This document shows positions 26,786 to 38,790 of a DNA stretch of 64,000 nucleotides, one piece after another. Positions within the stretch are counted from its first letter, which is position 1. Every line of letters starts with the position of its first letter. Made by a program: the position numbers and the translations under genes. The stretch comes from Asterias amurensis (lineage: Eukaryota; Echinodermata; Asteroidea; Forcipulatida; Asteriidae), in contig NC_092657.1 of NCBI RefSeq assembly GCF_032118995.1, positions 9,115,391-9,179,390 on the forward strand. Direction: 5' to 3'. The notes below the pieces were generated by a model. That model did not search any database. It saw only the letters and a list, made by a program, of their open reading frames with translations, and was not told where the DNA came from.

Positions 26786-27262
26786 TTCAAGTTATAATGT
26801 TATTTTAATAGTTGAACATGCAATGAACAATGTTGTAGACACCAGCATGCCTTGCGCCTGCATAAGGCTACAGCCACTTATTTTTGGTTACTTTGACTGC
26901 TGAACCATAACGTTGAACCATAACCGTAATGTTGAGTTCGTCCCTTGGATACTACGCCGTTAACTTAATTTCAGATACATTTTTTTTTTAATTTCAGATA
27001 CATTTGTTTCATGTCAACATTAATCAACACAATGTGATACCATTGTTCAGAAAACATATAATAACTTGTACTAATGAACTTAATCCAGTTAACGAATGAT
27101 AGGCCCATAGGAAATAGTTTGACGTTAACATGATAGGAAAAACAAGAAGCAAAAGCTTTTTTCCCCTTTTCTCTAAATACAAGGACAATTTACACAAAAA
27201 TGTACACACTCAAACAGAAGGAACATGGAAAATGGGCATTAGTGAGACGCTGCAATAGATAA
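26786..27262. other. No recognisable gene
   Basis: Flanking sequence of the LTR element. A short TTTAATTTCAGATACATT direct repeat lies at 26967-27004. Confidence 0.35.
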
Positions 27263-27266
27263 ATAT

Positions 27267-27859
27267 TGTGGCGCCTCACCCTCCGACGTAGAGGGCGGTG
27301 CGCGGACGGCAACGACGAGAACGTCTCCGAGCGGCTGGAGACGAGTCCGTTGGGATGGATGTATACCGTCCCGAGAAAAGGTACATGCAGGGGTTGAAGG
27401 TGGCTTCTCAATTACAGGAGACAGACAGCAGAGGGCGCCCTTTCAGCACAAATGACCTGCAGACAGCAGTACCAGCAACAACAAGAAGGGGCACAGCGCT
27501 CTATAACTCAGCAGTTAGAAGCCCAGCAGCACGCCAGCAATGACTCAATAAACCCACAAGCTCTATGATTGGACAATGTAATCTCGTTATTGGACCATAG
27601 AGGATATCACCACGAATGGCAATAATCCCCTCAGAGGACTCCTGAAGGAACCCTTTTCGCCGCACTACCCAGTATGCCCCTCAAGTGAGGAACCTATTCG
27701 CCGCACAACCCAGTATGGCCCCTCAACTACACTACAAGGTCCCCTCAATTTAGCTCATATACAAGAACCGTTACAGCCGACTATAGTCAGCCGATTCCCT
27801 TACACGCAGCAGCCCCTCAGTCCACTTACCTAGTAGACGGGACACAGTGCAGTCAGAGT
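27267..27859 (-). repeat. 3' LTR of the Gypsy-type element
   Basis: 593 bp recognisable, almost identical to the matching part of the 5' LTR. It begins TGTGGCGCCTCACC directly after the ATAT duplication. An AATAAA lies within it on the plus strand. Confidence 0.8.
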
Positions 27860-28153
27860 ACACAAAAATAATACAAACCTCTTTGTCTTTAATACAGGTA
27901 CGAAAATAATACTTACTTTTAACGCTTATAGAAAAGTTAAACAGCCTCCTCTTTTATCAAAACTTTACTTTAAAGAACTTTTATCAAAACTATACTTTAA
28001 AGAACCTTTATCAAAACTATAAATTTCAGGAAGAATTTCTTTGGCAATTAAATATTCACACACTGATTAGTAAACTGATTAGACCTGATTCGTTTTTAAG
28101 AAAGATAAACTGGCAAGGAGTTACGTGAACGCGAAGACGGTGGGGAACATCCT

Positions 28154-29245
28154 TCAAAGGTTCCTAGATGGCGACTGCGGCTTGCGTGGTCCCACGTTGT
28201 TCTGCTGTTGCATCTTTATGGTTTCCAGAGCTCTCATGCAGTCTACCAGCACGTCCTGATAGTACGTACGCTGCCTGGTCTCTCCATGAATCATCACTCC
28301 TCTTACATACGTACGAGTCTTGATGTGTTCCACGATGGTGGCCACCTCTGGGCACTGGGGGCGAAGACGCCGGATACGGATGGGCTGTTGGTCGGGGTCA
28401 GGGCTACTCTTCCCTGATGAGCCGGTTGGCGGGGTGTTCTTCGGGGCGATGGGGCGCCCTGCCGTTACTGGGGCTCTCACTGGAGAAAGGCGGGGCTTCG
28501 AAGTCACTGATGCCTTTGGGGACACAGGGCGTGGCCGTGACGCTTCCGGGGCCTTGACGGACGAAGAAGGAGGTCGTGGCTCCTCTTCCATGGCTTCTAC
28601 TTGAACATCCATCTGCTCTTCGTCTTCCTTAACTACTATATCCAGGCCAGGCAGTGATGAAACGATGCTGAGGGCATCGTCATCCCATTCCTCCTCATCT
28701 GAAGGAGACGGGTGGAGGGGCGACATGGCCAGTGGCATCTTCCAACGCAAGGGGAAAGGCTTCTTAACCAGCTCGGCCTCCTGACTCGCTTCACCAGTCG
28801 GTGGATCTTCGTTGCTCTTGACAACTCTCCGCACCTCGTGGGGCTTGGCGATGTCCTGTCCGGGCTCCTCCCTCACCAGGGGTTTTGCTTTAATTCCCGT
28901 GACCTCGTACACATTCTCAGGGTGGTCCGTCTTATAATGGCGCCTCAGATTATCTCTTCTTTTATCCTCGTACTCGCAGATCCGGCAATGGAGGAAAACT
29001 GGCGGCCCGTGGGTATACTTCCGGTGACGGTTTAACCCCTTCGGTTGGGTGAATGCCTTGTCGCACTTCAAACACTTGTAGGGCTTTGGCTTCCAAACTG
29101 CCCTCTGACCCGCTGGTATTACTGTTGTTTCTGCTACTACTACTCGTCCAGCAAAATGGTTGCCAGCACTCCCAGTGCATCTAATTCTCTCCCCATTCAC
29201 GCATAATTCTAATCTGCCGAAATTAAGATTACCGCCGGTTTGCAA
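28154..29245 (-). CDS. C2H2 zinc-finger ORF of the LTR element (363 aa)
   Basis: The first about 50 residues (LNFGRLELCVNGERIRC, VVVAETTVIPAGQ) look like the tail of the protease region. Two C2H2 fingers follow, at about 58-79 (C-x2-C-x12-H-x4-H) and 87-108 (same spacing). Then comes an acidic, proline-rich stretch (about 180-300, with VKAPEASRPRPVSPKAS-type repeats) and a helical C-terminus with a Gln-rich end. The fingers suggest nucleic-acid binding. In ordinary Gypsy elements this place holds reverse transcriptase and integrase. Finger capture is my inference, since I know of no named family with this layout. Confidence 0.7.
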   Translation of the reverse strand: MQTGGNLNFGRLELCVNGERIRCTGSAGNHFAGRVVVAETTVIPAGQRAVWKPKPYKCLKCDKAFTQPKGLNRHRKYTHGPPVFLHCRICEYEDKRRDNLRRHYKTDHPENVYEVTGIKAKPLVREEPGQDIAKPHEVRRVVKSNEDPPTGEASQEAELVKKPFPLRWKMPLAMSPLHPSPSDEEEWDDDALSIVSSLPGLDIVVKEDEEQMDVQVEAMEEEPRPPSSSVKAPEASRPRPVSPKASVTSKPRLSPVRAPVTAGRPIAPKNTPPTGSSGKSSPDPDQQPIRIRRLRPQCPEVATIVEHIKTRTYVRGVMIHGETRQRTYYQDVLVDCMRALETIKMQQQNNVGPRKPQSPSRNL

Positions 29246-31066
29246 CTACCAATCCATTCCCAGCATTGCAGGGGTTCCGATATCGGCAACAACAGCTTTA
29301 ATTGGGTGTACTGTCTTCCCAATTCGTAATTCCAACCAGGCTGAACCATACACTTTCAATAGACTCCCGTCAACCTGTCTGACCTTCGACTCACATTCCT
29401 GCAGATGAGGTCGGTGTTCATTCAGTATTTTATGATACACCGCCATACTCAAGAACGTATCGGTTGAACCAGTATCAACAAGCAACCGAAATTTAATAGA
29501 TCGAATTGAACCTTCCACAAACAACCCACACAACGGCCCAATTGTGGGCGTCGCCGGACCACAAACCAGATAACTGTTTACGTCTGTTGAGGGCCCTGCT
29601 CTTCTCTCAGTCTTCCCGGGGACCCACTGGTACGTCGACTGATCCTCGTTTTCCGACACACGAGGGCGCTTTCTTCTTGGTAACTGGCATTCCCTTGCAA
29701 AATGCCCTTGAACCCCACAATTGTGACACTTCATAGGCGCCTTATACCTCTTTGCCGGCGGTAAGCCATCGAATTGTCCGGATACCGGTTGTGCCCGTTG
29801 CCGTGGCACTAGTACACCTAATATCCTATCCAACTGTTGAGCCATATTGCTCACACACTCAGACTGTTGGCTTAACGTTCTTTCAACTGACCGGAATCTA
29901 GTCTCTACCTCATCGTTATCGTTCGCCCCTCGAGCAAACTTATAAGATGGTCTTTCCCCAACTCGTTGGGCTTCAACCTTATGAAAATTCTCTGTTTCTA
30001 AGGCGGCTTGTAATGCCTCTGATAAATCTCTGGGCCTTGCCAGAAATATCCCCTCACGAACAAACTGGTCGGATACAGCATCAACAAAATGATTTTTCTC
30101 CAGCCGGTCCCTTGCCTCTTCAGGTATTTCAGGGTATGCTTTCACGGCTAACTCATGTATCCCTTGACAAAGTTCTTGTAGTGTTTCTTTTGGCTTCTGC
30201 CGACGATGACGTAATTCTACCAGAAAATTCTCTGCCTGATGACCAGGCCCGAATCTCCGCTTTAACAACATAACCATCTCATCATATGTCCTCTTGTGCC
30301 CCTCGTGTGAGCCCAAGATGCGGACTGCATCTCCTTGTAGACTGGCAGCCAAAAATGCAGCAGACTGCTGTTTATCCCAATGGTTCACCATACGACAACT
30401 CTCAAAATGCCCGTAATATTCGTTCCACGGGACTTTACCATTATACCTATCAGGCATAATACAAGGACGTCGAGGACCCTCTGATTTCTCAAACCTTGCC
30501 TCCCTTTTCAACGGCCAAGGCCCAGCCTTGTCTGCCTCAGAGTCATCAGCCATCACCCTTTCAGCCATAGCCACAGGCGGGCGCGTAGCAGAACTCATTA
30601 ACTCATTACGGAACCTTTTTGGATCGGGCGTGCTCACAGCATCCACAAATGGGTTTCGATTCGGACTTGGAACGACGGGCGGACCAGACAACTTATCCCT
30701 CGCTAACGCCGACCAATCATAAATACCAGACTCACCACCCCCCTCAATGGGATGGGATTTCGAAGAAGGTTTATCACCAGATTCTGAATCTTCCAAAGAA
30801 CAATACCCAGACGCCTCCTTCCTAATCTCAGCCAGCCCCTGGCATGGCAGTCTAAACTCAACATCCAGATCTATCCTGACGTGTTTATGAACAGTACTTG
30901 GGGCCTCACTAATTGGGCTTACCCCAGACGGCTTTACTTCTTCCAACGCAGCCTTCAGTTTCTTGATTTGTTCCAAATGCAGACAATTTTCCCACTGTAA
31001 CAACTGAAACTCCAATCGGGACCTATGTAGGTCCTCCCCAGATGGGACTCCAGACATTTTGCCCAA
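29246..31066 (-). CDS. Gag-protease ORF of the LTR element (606 aa)
   Basis: Residues about 1-45 form a helical head and 60-200 an acidic linker. About 205-360 is a retrotransposon Gag (capsid-like) domain: YNGKVPWNEYYGHF, AFLAASLQGDA, LLKRRFGPG, ELCQGIHELAVKAYPE. Residues 447-460 are a CCHC zinc knuckle (CHNCGVQGHFAREC), followed by a basic patch. From about 500 to the end is an aspartic protease with the catalytic DTGS (531-534) and a closing LGMDW. In this family Gag packages the RNA and the protease cuts the polyprotein. The zinc-finger ORF follows directly. Confidence 0.85.
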   Translation of the reverse strand: MGKMSGVPSGEDLHRSRLEFQLLQWENCLHLEQIKKLKAALEEVKPSGVSPISEAPSTVHKHVRIDLDVEFRLPCQGLAEIRKEASGYCSLEDSESGDKPSSKSHPIEGGGESGIYDWSALARDKLSGPPVVPSPNRNPFVDAVSTPDPKRFRNELMSSATRPPVAMAERVMADDSEADKAGPWPLKREARFEKSEGPRRPCIMPDRYNGKVPWNEYYGHFESCRMVNHWDKQQSAAFLAASLQGDAVRILGSHEGHKRTYDEMVMLLKRRFGPGHQAENFLVELRHRRQKPKETLQELCQGIHELAVKAYPEIPEEARDRLEKNHFVDAVSDQFVREGIFLARPRDLSEALQAALETENFHKVEAQRVGERPSYKFARGANDNDEVETRFRSVERTLSQQSECVSNMAQQLDRILGVLVPRQRAQPVSGQFDGLPPAKRYKAPMKCHNCGVQGHFARECQLPRRKRPRVSENEDQSTYQWVPGKTERRAGPSTDVNSYLVCGPATPTIGPLCGLFVEGSIRSIKFRLLVDTGSTDTFLSMAVYHKILNEHRPHLQECESKVRQVDGSLLKVYGSAWLELRIGKTVHPIKAVVADIGTPAMLGMDW

Positions 31067-31399
31067 TTGCTAAACGGGTGTATCTTCGTAATCGTTCCGT
31101 TCTACAGATACTGGCCTTGATAACCAACGAATACCCCTTCTCTGTCTCCTTGTCTCACGGCAAATACACCAAATGAACCAAATCAATTCAACCGCAAGGG
31201 CTATCAACAACCCAAGTAAAACACAAAGAATCCAACTAGCCCACATCAATACAACAACTGTCTTAACTCTTTGTAAGGTCTGAAACTAAGGTAGACGATC
31301 AGTGCAGCAAAGAATGACAAAAGCACAAAAAACCAAACCTTCATTCCATAACACACCATAACATGTACACAATTCAAAATCCCACTTCTGACACCAATT

Positions 31400-32181
31400 T
31401 GTGGCGCCTCACCCTCCGACGTAGAGGGCGGTGCGCGGACGGCAACGACGAGAACGTCTCCGAGCGGCTGGAGACGAGTCCGTTGGGATGGATGTATACC
31501 ATCCCGAGAAAAGGTACATGCAGGGGTTGAAGGTGGCTTCTCAATTACAGGAGACAGACAGCAGAGGGCGCCCTTTCAGCACAAATGACCTGCAGACAGC
31601 AGTACCAGCAACAACAAGAAGGGGCACAGCGCTCTATAACTCAGCAGTTAGAAGCCCAGCAGCACGCCAGCAATGACTCAATAAACCCACAAGCTCTATG
31701 ATTGGACAATGTAATCTCGTTATTGGACCATAGAGGATATCACCACGAATGGCAATAATCCCCTCAGAGGACTCCTGAAGGAACCCTTTTCGCCGCACTA
31801 CCCAGTATGCCCCTCAAGTGAGGAACCTATTCGCCGCACAACCCAGTATGGCCCCTCAACTACACTACAAGGTCCCCTCAATTTAGCTCATATACAAGAA
31901 CCGTTACAGCCGACTATAGTCAGCCGATTCCCTTACACGCAGCAGCCCCTCAGTCCACTTACCTAGTAGACGGGACACAGTGCAGTCAGAGTGTGGCAAG
32001 AACAATCAGTATTACTTGATTATCAGTCCAGCCCCTCATCACTCTGCACGTCGCTGCTTTTATAGCATTCGGCCACGTGCACACGTGATCGCGCTAACCA
32101 ATAGCACGCGCTATGCGGGGTCACTGCTGTTGGGATGGTTCCATTCCTCGCGCAGGGGCGTTCTACCTCTGTTGCGCCACA
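31400..32181 (-). repeat. 5' LTR of the Gypsy-type element
   Basis: 782 bp. A TATA-like motif (TATAAAAG on the minus strand) lies near 32055-32065, as in a U3 promoter. The outer end is GCGCCACA followed by the ATAT duplication. Confidence 0.8.
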
Positions 32182-32185
32182 ATAT

Positions 32186-32764
32186 ATTTGTTTTAAAATG
32201 TGGTGTATTAAAAACAAACAGACACATAATTAAGAAGTGGTGTATGAGTTAATATAACTCTGATCGTTACCGACCGGTGGGTTCTGGGGAACCATACGCA
32301 AGATCAAGGCAGTCCACACTAATGACTGGGTAAAGCTAAAAAGAAAAAAAACAACAATGTGAAGACTGAAGAAGTCGTCATCTTCAGAAAGTGAAGTTGG
32401 AGGCGGCAGGTCGCGATCATGACCCATCTGTCACACTTAAGACCTTGTCTCAAGAACTGTAACAAATTGGAACCATAGTAAGGGAACTGTCTTTTGCCCA
32501 AAAAAAATACAGAACTTGATATAGTCGTCAAGTGCAAGGTTTGCTTCGATAAATGTACACCGCCAATTCTGGCTACTCAGTGTTGTCTTAACATTGTTTG
32601 GGTGCTCCACATGTGTGGAGCAATGCAGTAATCCATCTTGTATTTTATGCCGAGCCTCTATTGAAGACTATCCTGAGGGCCTGTTTGTCGAATTGCCCCA
32701 AGTTAGTCTTCTAGCACTTGTGGGCATAGAAACAATATAGCCATGGCAGATCCGCACTTACAAG
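32186..32764. other. No recognisable gene
   Basis: Right flank of the LTR element. Nothing supported. Confidence 0.35.
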
Positions 32765-33085
32765 TTAAAGGAACACGTTGCCTTGGATCGGTAGAATTGG
32801 TGTTTGAAAAGCGGTTGTAGCCGTTTGCATATGATTAAAAGATATTTTTAAAGAAAATATAATGATCCACACAAATTTTCCTCCAAATTGCGTGGTTTTC
32901 CTTTTACTTGGCGAACTAACACGGTCGGCCATGTAAGTCGTCGAGGTAAAAGGAAAACCACGCAATTTCGAGTAATACTTGTGTGGATCATTTTAATTGT
33001 AATTTTTACATCTATCTATATGCATTTTATAACAAACGCTTTTCAAAGACCAACTCGACCAATCCAAAACAACGTGTTCCTTTAA
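32765..33085. repeat. Palindromic MITE, TTAAAGGAACACGTTGCC ends
   Basis: A nearly complete foldback. The left end TTAAAGGAACACGTTGCC pairs with the right end AACGTGTTCCTTTAA, and the inner arms share CCACACAAxTTT and GTGGTTTTCCTTTTAC. Two opposing 65-66-codon frames with the same first residues (MRGFPFT) arise from the palindrome. Copies or fragments lie at 17410, 20056 and 46753. Confidence 0.8.
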
Positions 33086-36039: not shown

Positions 36040-38790
36040 TTCCTAGGGGATGTTAACTACCTCCCGATACGATCGTGAAAACTGCCAACATTGGAGCTCC
36101 ACTCCTTCGTGTAGGAAGACTCTAATGGTTTGCTCGGGCACCACTGCGAGGACTCTGCGGCCTGATGGTTCAGTCTGCGCCGCCTGGCTGTTTTTCTGGA
36201 CTGGGGGTGGTCGCACTAACTGCAGGTATGGCATCGACGAGCTGTCAGAACTGGTCACTACTGGCGCCGAGTCCGTCAGAGAAAGCGTCCCCCGCAGCTT
36301 TCCCCGTCAATAGCTGCCGAGAGGTCTGGGGGCGGCAAGGGTGTCCAGAGAGACTGGTCGCTGCAATGGAGATATAGGGGTTGGCGACAACAAAATGACG
36401 ACTTCTTCGTTCTCCCGACCCTCCGCTTCCACCGGAGGCGTAGACACGGTTTCTGGGAACAAGCCTGCCACTACCAGCCTTGCCATTTGATTTTGGATTA
36501 TAGGCGGTTGTTCGGGTTTTCCTGATTCCAAGGAGTCAACCCATTTCCCTTAACACCTCGAACTCAAAATTGCAGCCCTGATCAGAAGTGGAGCGCTTGG
36601 GGAACTCCAAACCTACAAACGAACTTGTTCACCAGTTTCAGAGCAACAGTGCTTGCAATGGAGTCACGAAGCATATATGCCTCCATCCACTTGGTGCAAT
36701 AGTCCCCCACCACCACAATCCAAAGGTTGCCACTGTCCGTCCTGGGCAGTGGCCCAAGCAAGTCTATTGCTACACGTTCCATCGGAACGCCAACCAGATA
36801 CTGCTGTAAAGGGGCAACCCTTTTCTTGGCAGCAGACTTCCTCCTAGCACATAGGTCACAAACCCTCAAACATGACCGAACACCTGGCCAAAAATACCTG
36901 TACTTCACCTTGGCAGGAGTCTTGTTAACACCTAGGTGTCCACTCAATTTTTAACATGCAACTCGTTGAGGATACCCTTTCTGAACTTCTGTGGCAAAAC
37001 CAGGAGCCATCTTGCCAACTTCCCATCATCCGACTCCCAACGCTTGTAGAGAACCCCCTCCTTGACTTCTAGCTGATCTCACTGGGACCAACACGTCTTG
37101 GAGCCCACAGAGGAGTGGGACCGTGCCTTCCACTCTGGACGACCACCACCATCCTCTTTGGACTTAAGGACCCAACTTAAGGAACAATAGTGTCATCTAC
37201 CAGCTGTGCCTCTCACAAAGCATCCGTCATGACCCCTTACCATCAACTCTTCACCCTGAGGTTTCACCTCGGGTTCCTCACCACTTTGCTGCTCAACATC
37301 GTTTCTTTCTTGTCGGCCACATTGTTTACACTGTCTCCTTATTTTTACTGGGTCGATGCTCCACTGTCAAATCATACTGTTAGATAACTTCAATCCATCG
37401 AGCCAGCTGACCCTCCAGGTTCTTAAAATTAAGGACCAACCGCAATGCAGCATGGTCAGTGCTCACTTTGACCTTCTGACTATACAAATACTGCTTGAAA
37501 TACTTCAAGTACATAACCACCGCCAACAACTCCTGTCTCATTACGCAATATTTGCGCTCAGGTTTACTGAGCTTGCGACTTGCGTAAGCTAGAACTCTTT
37601 CCTCACTATCTTGGATCTGTGAGAGTACCGCCCCAATGCCTTCTCCGCTGACATCAGTGTCCAAGATAAAGTCACCTTCAGGATTCGGGTATGACAAGAT
37701 TGGGGCAGACTGAAGCCTGTCCTTCAACTTATCAAATGCCCCATGACGAGACTCCGTCCATGCAAACTCCCTTGATTTCTTGGTCAGGGCATGCAATGGG
37801 CTGGCGATTTCTGCAAATCTGCAGATGAACTTTCGATAATAAGAGGCGAGGCCTAGAAAGCTCCTCACATCTCTAACACACCTCGGAGTTGGCCACTCAG
37901 CCACCGCCTTTACCTTTTCTGGATCCGTCGCAACCCTCCTGAGGACACATTGTGCCCCAGATAAGCCACCGACCTTTGAAACAAGTGACATTTGCTTGGC
38001 TTCAATTTGAGTCCTGCATGTCACAATCTATCCAAAAACAACCCTCAAACGATGTGTAGTCTCTGTTTCTGTTCGACCAAAGACAATAACATCGTCCAAG
38101 TAAACCAACAAGATGTCCCACTGCAAACCAGCCATGACCATTTCCATGAGACGTTCAAACGTTGCCGGGGCATTGCATAACCGAAAAGGCATGCATTTCC
38201 ATTTGTATAACCAATTCCTGACAACAAAAGTGGATTTTTGGCTGGCGCCCTCATCCAGAGCAACTTGCCAATACCCTGACGCCATGTCGACTGTCGTTAA
38301 CCACTTAGCCGCATTCAGAGCGTAAAACGTTCCATCGATACGTGGCACGGAGTACGCATCTTTGATGGTGACCGCGTTCAACTTCCTGTAATTAACACAG
38401 AAACACTTGGTTCCGTCCTTCCGAGGGCTCAATAACGCCTCTCTCCTCTAGATCTGCCACCTGTCTCTGAGGTTCTTGCTGATTGCAATAGGGGTGCCTC
38501 CTTGCCCGTTCTTTAACTGGCCTAGCACTTCCTGTCTTAATTTGGTGTTCAACAATATTGGTTGTACCAATGTCTTTTCTCCCTTGGAAAACACATCCTC
38601 ATAGTCGTACTAACACTTCCCAACCTTACTGTGGTACCTGGCCTCAAGGTTAGCCGTACCCCTTTCATAGACGTCAAGCAAATGTACCGGGAGGGAATTC
38701 ACTGCACTCAGTGGTGACGCTAATTCTCCAAACCCACAGTCAGCATCAACCTAAGAGAGTGTTCCCACAGTGGTCCCCTCACGAGCCACC
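36040..38790 (-). mobile_element. Ty3/Gypsy pol fossil, broken
   Basis: On the minus strand, from right to left, lie a reverse transcriptase segment (38432-38028: YRKLNAVTIKDAYSVP, catalytic VYLDDVIVF), the RT thumb and RNase H (38024-37380: FLGLASYYRKFI, DTDVSGEGIGAVLSQ, HAALR) and an integrase segment (36947-36582: GHLGVNKT, zinc-binding CDLCARRK, IDLLGPLPRT). Pro-rich frames follow at 36531-36043. I find no LTRs and no gag. The copy is dead, with several breaks (about half a dozen or more), and is clearly older than the element at 27-32 kb. Its right edge abuts the long-TIR element at 38807, which probably inserted into it. Confidence 0.85.

What the first reader, a model, noticed from the sequence alone, without database searches (positions are those of the whole stretch)
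27267..32181. Young Gypsy-type LTR element carrying a C2H2 zinc-finger ORF where pol is expected
Seen: gag with a CCHC knuckle, a DTGS protease, then two C2H2 fingers and a long acidic, proline-rich tail, all between LTRs that differ at about one position in about 590 and flanked by ATAT on both sides. No RT, RNase H or integrase is seen. Both ORFs are long and open. Known: Gypsy elements normally continue from protease into RT. Inference: a non-autonomous family that captured, or was captured around, a DNA/RNA-binding protein and spreads with borrowed enzymes. The fingers might steer integration or silence rivals. This is the best candidate here for an undescribed system.
Basis: partly seen in the sequence, partly recalled or inferred. 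Interest (0 to 1): 0.82.

Follow-up and report, generated by a model that had tools for sequence, protein, structure and literature searches.

The report
Enzyme-less retrotransposon keeping its zinc-finger protein
This is a young sea-star retrotransposon that lost its copying enzymes but kept its shell protein, its protease and a zinc-finger protein, and relatives in the same genome show that the zinc-finger protein is an extra gene they normally carry rather than something captured here.

Summary
The element is real. It lies on the minus strand: LTRs, ATAT duplication, gag (CCHC), protease, two C2H2 fingers, no pol. The genome matches the Asterias amurensis assembly. Four separate insertions share the pol-less structure, each with its own 4-bp duplication and near-identical LTRs. 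A copy with 98.6% identical LTRs has RT, RNase H and integrase between protease and fingers; there the fingers are a separate third ORF in the env position behind a splice-acceptor-like site. So nothing was captured here: pol was deleted and gag-pro fused to the parent's ORF3. New points: (i) such an ORF3 lies downstream in 21 of 24 integrase matches of this clade, read in six families; (ii) a 920-codon gene resembles ORF3 in fingers and C-terminus; (iii) pol-less single-frame gag-pro elements arose in about four lineages, each keeping a zinc-binding module. Most likely short elements borrow relatives' enzymes and ORF3 is a nuclear regulator (inferred). Six literature searches in one library showed no described Gypsy C2H2 ORF3.

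The parts
27263..27266 (.). target-site duplication ATAT (left)
27267..27857 (-). 3' LTR, truncated (lacks the first ~189 bp of the 782-bp LTR)
28154..28156 (-). stop codon of the ORF3-derived region
28238..28348 (-). C-terminal ORF3 motif (predicted beta hairpin plus helix)
28349..28918 (-). Pro-rich / acidic linker, predicted disordered
28919..28990 (-). C2H2 finger 2
29009..29080 (-). C2H2 finger 1
29104..29107 (-). deletion join: protease linker fused to ORF3 with pol missing
29246..29248 (-). in-frame TAG stop, absent from the three other short copies (L010, L011, L012)
29249..29518 (-). aspartyl protease (DTGS)
29684..29731 (-). CCHC zinc knuckle of gag
29249..31066 (-). gag-pro open frame (first ATG at 31057)
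31378..31396 (-). primer-binding site: 19 nt complementary to a tRNA 3' end plus CCA (tRNA-Leu by recall)
31400..32181 (-). 5' LTR, 782 bp
31957..31965 (-). splice-donor-like TAG|GTAAGT in the LTR
32182..32185 (.). target-site duplication ATAT (right)

Best explanation
A pol-less derivative of a full-length Gypsy retrotransposon. Shown: the pol-bearing relative is LTR-gag / pro-RT-RNaseH-integrase / ORF3-LTR, with ORF3 (two C2H2 fingers, disordered Pro/acidic linker, C-terminal hairpin) as a separate gene after integrase. The short form lacks everything from the start of RT to the start of ORF3, with the protease linker joined in frame to ORF3; gag and protease also lie in one frame, so the short element can encode one Gag-Pro-zinc-finger polyprotein. 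Four insertions of this form were found. Inferred: (a) the short RNA is packaged and copied by enzymes of relatives that share its LTRs, primer site and polypurine tract; (b) in the parents ORF3 comes from a spliced mRNA and acts in the nucleus as a regulator of the element's own DNA or RNA (LTR transcription, or export of unspliced RNA as for Cer1 CERV); (c) in the short form the fingers can only be made as part of the Gag-Pro polyprotein, because ORF3's own start and acceptor-like site are missing. Confidence about 0.9 for origin, 0.85 for (a), 0.35 for the exact role in (b).
For: Nearly the same LTRs, and 3627 bp more between protease and fingers, in L009 (98.6% LTR identity); that stretch encodes RT, RNase H, H2C2, rve and integrase C-terminal domains, then ORF3. 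Four short copies (window, L010, L011, L012) on four chromosomes share the pol-less structure, each with a perfect 4-bp TSD (ATAT, ATAT, CAGG, CTGC) and LTR pairs differing at 1/591, 2/791, 2/789, 0/805. Identical PBS in 5 of 5 copies, identical polypurine region in 4 of 5. ORF3 within 3 kb of 21 of 24 integrase matches at 51% identity or more. In 6 of 7 ORF3s the best acceptor-like YAG lies 0-22 nt before the ATG, in the seventh two tie at 32 and 81 nt; 6 of 7 have at least 14/20 pyrimidines. Mosaicism: in one 400-column block of the ORF3 region the short copy L012 equals the pol-bearing copy (0/400) while window, L010 and L011 differ from it at 20/394, 10/400 and 19/394; between mid gag and the join L012 differs from it at 26/695. 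dN/dS 0.19-0.37 for gag-pro and 0.20-0.35 for ORF3 in three pairs each of short copies. Finger-2 contact residues R-D-N-R are the same in A and B and in two of three finger pairs of the 920-codon gene.
Against: No RNA or protein data, so splicing, expression and packaging are unproven. Part of the low dN/dS may have accumulated in full-length ancestors. In family B dN/dS of ORF3 is 0.44-0.78 and not different from 1 in the two of three pairs tested, though the integrase of the same copies gives a similar 0.45-0.70. The mosaic could also come from DNA gene conversion. LTRs are not clearly enriched for the 6-mer predicted from the fingers (31-117 of 500 shuffles reach the observed 3-4 sites); contact residues differ in families E and G. 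The acceptor background came from coding DNA, which may understate chance in T-rich spacers. The window copy has a stop and no polypurine tract, so it is probably not mobile.
Confidence: 0.8

Rival explanations
1. A non-autonomous element captured a host zinc-finger gene in place of pol.
For: No pol in the element; fingers have C2H2 relatives in the genome.
Against: Fingers sit after a complete pol in a copy with 98.6% identical LTRs and after integrase in the six families read; the join lies between RT's start and ORF3's start.
Confidence: 0.03
2. ORF3 is a particle or integration factor (nucleic-acid chaperone or chromatin tether) rather than a regulator of transcription or export; in the short form it is delivered inside the particle as part of Gag-Pro.
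For: Fusion to Gag-Pro keeps the fingers; three further pol-less groups keep the integrase HHCC zinc-binding module after protease (the third group by search only).
Against: In full-length elements ORF3 is a separate ORF behind an acceptor-like site, apart from gag and pol; finger-2 contact residues are shared by A, B and two pairs of the 920-codon gene, which suggests specific binding.
Confidence: 0.3
3. The short elements persist as interfering or self-limiting forms: their Gag-Pro polyprotein disturbs particles of the full-length parent, so host and element tolerate them.
For: Gag-pro kept in one frame in about four lineages; a single frame removes the gag/pol frame difference seen in L009.
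Against: No functional data; cis signals plus enzymes supplied in trans explain the copies without interference.
Confidence: 0.12
4. ORF3 is an envelope-like protein in the env position.
For: Position after integrase and apparent spliced expression, as for env.
Against: No transmembrane-like segment in 6 of 6 ORF3s (highest 19-residue Kyte-Doolittle mean 1.29); C2H2 fingers instead.
Confidence: 0.02
5. The short copies are dead duplicates spread by segmental duplication.
For: The window copy is damaged.
Against: Four chromosomes, own TSDs, near-identical LTR pairs.
Confidence: 0.02

Closest known systems
Full-length Ty3/Gypsy (Metaviridae) retrotransposons
   Same: gag, pro-RT-RNaseH-integrase order in L009, tRNA primer site, TG..CA LTRs, 4-bp TSD
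   Different: pol absent from the window element; a C2H2 ORF3 in the env position of the parents
TR-GAG and other gag-retaining non-autonomous LTR elements of plants (PMC9784723, PMC6022998: start of abstract in a search listing only; definition recalled)
   Same: keeps gag between LTRs, no pol, needs a helper
   Different: keeps protease and a zinc-finger protein fused in one frame; animal host; about four lineages in one genome
Cer1 of C. elegans with CERV (PMC10309623, abstract and outline seen)
   Same: LTR element with a regulator encoded by a spliced mRNA, separate from gag and pol
   Different: CERV is called a novel protein needed for RNA export; the abstract does not mention C2H2 fingers and I did not compare sequences
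Bdelloid rotifer LTR elements with non-env ORF3 (PMC5408684, passages seen)
   Same: additional ORF3 after pol that is not env
   Different: ORF3 types there are env, GDSL, DEDDy, coiled-coil or TM; the word zinc has 0 occurrences in that main text
Retroviral transactivators such as foamy virus Tas or HTLV Tax (recalled, not compared)
   Same: proposed logic: self-encoded nuclear regulator
   Different: no sequence relation tested; ORF3 uses C2H2 fingers
Spliced env of Drosophila gypsy (errantiviruses; recalled)
   Same: third ORF after pol expressed from spliced RNA
   Different: zinc fingers instead of a membrane glycoprotein

Membership tests
Ty3/Gypsy LTR retrotransposon | pol order protease-RT-RNaseH-integrase | tested here: met
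   Met in the pol-bearing copy L009; the window copy itself has only protease
Ty3/Gypsy LTR retrotransposon | LTRs TG..CA, tRNA primer site, 4-6 bp TSD | tested here: met
   5 of 5 copies have TG..CA, the same PBS and perfect 4-bp TSDs; the PBS complements a tRNA-like 3' end found at 28 places, 0 in the reversed control
Ty3/Gypsy LTR retrotransposon | placement in the RT tree of named Gypsy clades | not tested
   No named reference RTs were used; only similarity ranking inside this genome
Errantivirus (env-bearing Gypsy) | membrane envelope glycoprotein as ORF3 | tested here: not met
   ORF3 has C2H2 fingers and no TM-like segment
Chromovirus | chromodomain at the integrase C-terminus | tested here: not met
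   No chromodomain among Pfam hits of L009 pol at E 0.01
Gag-only non-autonomous LTR elements (TR-GAG type; definition recalled) | gag kept, pol absent, several copies | tested here: met
   4 copies share the structure
Gag-only non-autonomous LTR elements (TR-GAG type; definition recalled) | only gag encoded | tested here: not met
   protease and two C2H2 fingers are encoded in the same frame
LTR element with spliced regulatory ORF3 (Cer1/CERV-like) | ORF3 made from a spliced mRNA | tested here: inconclusive
   acceptor-like sites before ORF3 in 7 of 7 ORF3s, donor-like site in the LTR; no RNA data
LTR element with spliced regulatory ORF3 (Cer1/CERV-like) | ORF3 protein is nuclear and regulates the element's RNA | not testable with these tools
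   needs experiment

The most novel reading that the evidence does not exclude
This sea-star Gypsy clade encodes its own two-finger transcription factor from a spliced env-position gene, derived long ago from a host gene or later domesticated as the 920-codon gene on C5, which carries three copies of the finger pair and the same C-terminal motif. Element and host then share a DNA target, so the host gene could act as a competitor that restrains the elements. The repeated rise of pol-less single-frame Gag-Pro-zinc elements would be a recurring evolutionary strategy, a retrotransposon counterpart of defective interfering genomes.
Probability: 0.15. Interest if true: 0.85.

Novelty: new variant of a known kind. 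Interest (0 to 1): 0.6.

Why it matters
A conserved C2H2 DNA-binding protein as the third gene of a Gypsy clade would add a new kind of accessory gene to LTR retrotransposons, with a testable self-regulation hypothesis. About four lineages in one genome seem to have dropped RT and kept gag, protease and a zinc-binding module in a single frame, which makes it possible to ask what a non-autonomous LTR element really needs. The related 920-codon gene offers a natural test of capture versus domestication.

Tried and rejected
Capture of fingers by the short element: rejected after the pol-bearing copy was found. Retro-processing by splicing as the cause of the deletion: rejected for the known join, because the ends of the missing stretch do not fit GT..AG; the join has about 2 bp of identity inside a longer imperfect match, fitting template switching. 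Env-like ORF3: no TM-like segment. LTR enrichment of the predicted 6-mer: in five LTRs, four of them from one family, 31-117 of 500 shuffles reached the observed count. ORF3 in the sister group (46-47% integrase identity, six copies): one sampled copy has a 364-codon frame with one C2H2-like motif; the other five copies gave no match, a decayed relative was matched at C10:10325026, Pfam finds nothing at E 0.05, and its acceptor-like site is weak, so I do not count it. The bacterial promoter scan of the LTR has no meaning for an animal and was not used. Rfam at gathering threshold: no match in window 26800-32700. AlphaFold model: fingers and hairpin moderately confident, the rest disordered, pTM 0.22, so no fold search was run. 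Literature: six searches for a Gypsy C2H2 third ORF (40, 18, 53, 3, 4 and 0 papers, of which 20, 18, 20, 3, 4 and 0 were listed) showed none in titles and abstract starts; only the open-licence library was searched and Repbase was not available.
Full report
Source. The window lies at C10:9115391-9179390 of a 491,506,623-base genome in 23 contigs. Contig sizes (C1 38.01 Mb, C9 23.75 Mb, C22 13.43 Mb, C23 16,427 bases) fit the Asterias amurensis assembly of PMC10625585, whose passages give 491.53 Mb, 22 chromosomes of 13.43-38.00 Mb and N50 23.75 Mb. I take the organism to be that sea star.

Anatomy. The element runs on the minus strand: 5' LTR 31400-32181 (782 bp), primer-binding site 31378-31396, gag with CCHC knuckle, DTGS protease, two C2H2 fingers, a Pro/acidic tail, then a truncated 3' LTR 27267-27857, with ATAT at both ends. 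Compared LTR bases differ at 1 of 591. Compared with other copies the window copy also lacks the polypurine tract and the first ~189 bp of the 3' LTR. The PBS complements 19 nt of a tRNA 3' end (16 encoded bases plus CCA); a 22-mer holding it occurs at 28 places, many in evenly spaced arrays, and 0 in the reversed control. No tRNA was folded; its identity as tRNA-Leu is from memory.

Copies. A search with the LTR gave 22 matches, a lower bound; I fetched twelve regions. The window and four of these (L009-L012) hold LTR pairs with clear ends. All five have perfect 4-bp TSDs: window ATAT, L009 CTGT, L010 ATAT, L011 CAGG, L012 CTGC; LTR differences 1/591, 0/780, 2/791, 2/789 (plus 2 gap columns), 0/805. 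Four (window, L010, L011, L012) are pol-less with the same structure; L010 and L012 have one uninterrupted 974-codon frame, L011 is broken in gag. L009 has 3627 bp more between protease and fingers, encoding RT, RNase H, integrase zinc-binding, core and C-terminal domains. After its pol stop comes a separate ORF of 322 codons, the zinc-finger protein. The other eight regions hold solo, partial, older or distant LTR matches.

How the short form arose. Around the join the short copies read GGGTCAGAGGGCAGTTTGG (three of four exactly; L011 has changes there); L009 has GGGTCACGAGGCAGTT at the start of its extra stretch and ATCCAGAGGGCAGTTTGG at its end. This is a join at about 2 bp of identity inside an imperfect longer match, as template switching would give, and does not fit GT..AG splicing. 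It also removes ORF3's ATG and the acceptor-like site, so fingers in the short form can only come from the fused frame. Gag and protease are in different frames in L009 but in one frame in the four short copies, with a 4-nt length difference between them there. Recombination between the two forms: in one 400-column block of the ORF3 region L012 differs from L009 at 0/400, while window, L010 and L011 differ at 20/394, 10/400 and 19/394. Over the internal region L012 differs from L009 at 16/1599 (first part), 26/695 (mid gag to join) and 6/1322 (after the join; Fisher p about 6e-8 for the last two). Since the short copies share the join, L012 has most likely exchanged its ORF3 part with the pol-bearing lineage, by co-packaged RNA or by gene conversion (inference).

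Selection. Among window, L010 and L012, dN/dS is 0.19-0.37 for gag-pro and 0.20-0.35 for the ORF3 part (three pairs each). Fisher tests on five of these six pairs give p 1e-6 to 0.013. Some of this may predate the deletion. Family B ORF3 gives 0.44-0.78 on few changes; two of its three pairs were tested and are not distinguishable from 1; integrase of the same copies gives 0.45-0.70.

ORF3 is a third gene of this clade. One search lists 91 integrase matches (91 of 431 candidates scored); I tabulated all 33 with 40% identity or more and did not examine the other 58. Of the 33, 24 have 51% identity or more, and 21 of these 24 have an ORF3 within 3 kb downstream on the same strand; the three misses cover only 202-282 residues of the query. 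None of the 9 weaker ones has one. Two of the 21 share one ORF3, and one ORF3 (C12:6.5 Mb) was entered from reading L053; later matched it weakly (E 9e-4). I read ORF3 in six families: A (L009), B (L032-L035, L037; L035 and L037 are frame-shifted), C (L039), D (L040), E (L055), G (L053). They share the Cys and His of two fingers, a KPR patch and a C-terminal motif, with 21-35% identity between family A and the others. Single-finger Pfam models pass their cut-off in A, D and E; in B, C and G they stay below it, and the fingers are read from Cys/His spacing and the alignment. Finger-2 contact positions are R,D,N,R in A and B, R,E,T,R in C, R,E,A,R in D, R,D,N,V in E and Q,F,A,R in G; finger 1 varies more (the positions are assigned by the usual C2H2 rule, recalled). 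The AlphaFold model shows two C2H2 fingers (pLDDT about 78-89), a disordered middle and a C-terminal hairpin plus helix (about 70), pTM 0.22. The ORF3 profile matches C2H2 arrays of solved proteins, as any C2H2 pair would.

Expression of ORF3. I looked for acceptor-like YAG sites before the ORF3 ATG in A, B, C, D, E, G and the decayed L038. In 6 of 7 the best site lies 0-22 nt before the ATG; in C two tie, 32 and 81 nt away; pyrimidines number 12-17 of 20, at least 14 in 6 of 7. In 12,214 coding bases sites with 14 or more occur 8 times, a chance of 0.023 per 35 nt. A TAG|GTAAGT donor-like site lies near position 218-230 of the LTR in window, L009, L010, L011 and L012 (also in L015, not in L017), and was the only strong one in the first 2.2-2.6 kb of the three copies scanned. 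Splicing is thus likely but unproven.

Recurrent pol-less elements. Searching with gag-pro and with a later tail gave three more groups whose gag-pro lies in one long frame without an RT match nearby, which scored 123 of 589 candidates and may miss distant RTs. B-type: C11:7.78 Mb, 1092 codons, gag-pro, integrase HHCC, then the ORF3 C-terminus, fingers missing. D-like: C2:8.72 Mb and C5:13.05 Mb, 1048 and 1053 codons, gag-pro, HHCC and integrase C-terminal domain, core missing; I read the C2 tail only. A fourth: five copies with 733-codon frames (C1, C2, C10, C12, C21) matching gag-pro at 35-36% and the HHCC part at 55% in the same frame; I did not read their sequence. Loss of RT with gag, protease and a zinc-binding module kept in one frame therefore seems to have happened about four times; the count rests on divergence between groups, not on a tree.

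A relative outside the elements. C5:3471222-3473981 is a 920-codon open frame with three ORF3-like finger pairs (39-46% identity to family A). Its end matches a profile of seven ORF3 C-termini at 19.5 bits against 5.8 for the best of 2000 shuffles. No other stop-to-stop frame of 170 codons or more lies in the 20 kb fetched around it, and a self-comparison shows no LTR pair, only a tandem repeat inside the frame's end region and one 106-bp repeat. I did not search the genome with this gene itself, so its copy number is not established. It may be the source of ORF3 or a domesticated ORF3.

Literature. Searches in the open-licence library showed no described Gypsy element with a C2H2 ORF3 in the listed titles and abstract starts. 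Passages seen on accessory ORFs (PMC5408684, PMC2774666, PMC7264820, PMC6338049) and on Troyka (PMC12440569) describe other features. Most subscription papers and Repbase are outside this search.

Verdict. A real, young, non-autonomous Gypsy family, explained by loss of pol from a parent with a zinc-finger third gene. The family form is ordinary in principle; the conserved C2H2 ORF3 and the repeated Gag-Pro-zinc derivatives are the new parts.

Noticed in passing
window 36046-38447 (-): Decayed pol and ORF3-tail pieces of a family-D-like Gypsy element (ORF3 tail 81% to family D), about 4 kb from the element studied.
   Followed up: partly
window 32855-32998: Inverted repeat with 70-nt arms, 81% complementary, 4-nt spacer, just beyond the element.
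   Followed up: no
L041:8222 to L042:981 (C5:3471222-3473981): 920-codon frame with three ORF3-like C2H2 pairs and the ORF3 C-terminal motif: possible source of ORF3 or domesticated ORF3.
   Followed up: partly
L056 (C11:7786200-7787500): Second pol-less single frame (1092 codons): gag-pro, integrase HHCC and ORF3 C-terminus, fingers missing.
   Followed up: yes
L057 (C2:8717400-8718760): Third pol-less single frame (1048 codons; 1053 at C5:13044701): gag-pro, HHCC, integrase C-terminal domain, core missing.
   Followed up: partly
C1:36383194, C2:6146287, C10:21878158, C12:8391524, C21:7015576: Five copies of a 733-codon frame with gag-pro and integrase HHCC in one frame; no RT match listed nearby; sequence not read.
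   Followed up: no
L038 (C10:10263756-10266962): Decayed element with gag pieces followed about 1 kb later by an ORF3 with fingers, an acceptor-like site at its ATG and the C-terminal motif; no pol match listed between.
   Followed up: partly
L054:1295-1801: Part of a 364-codon frame with a single C2H2-like motif about 1 kb after integrase in one of six copies of the sister group; no match at the other five.
   Followed up: partly
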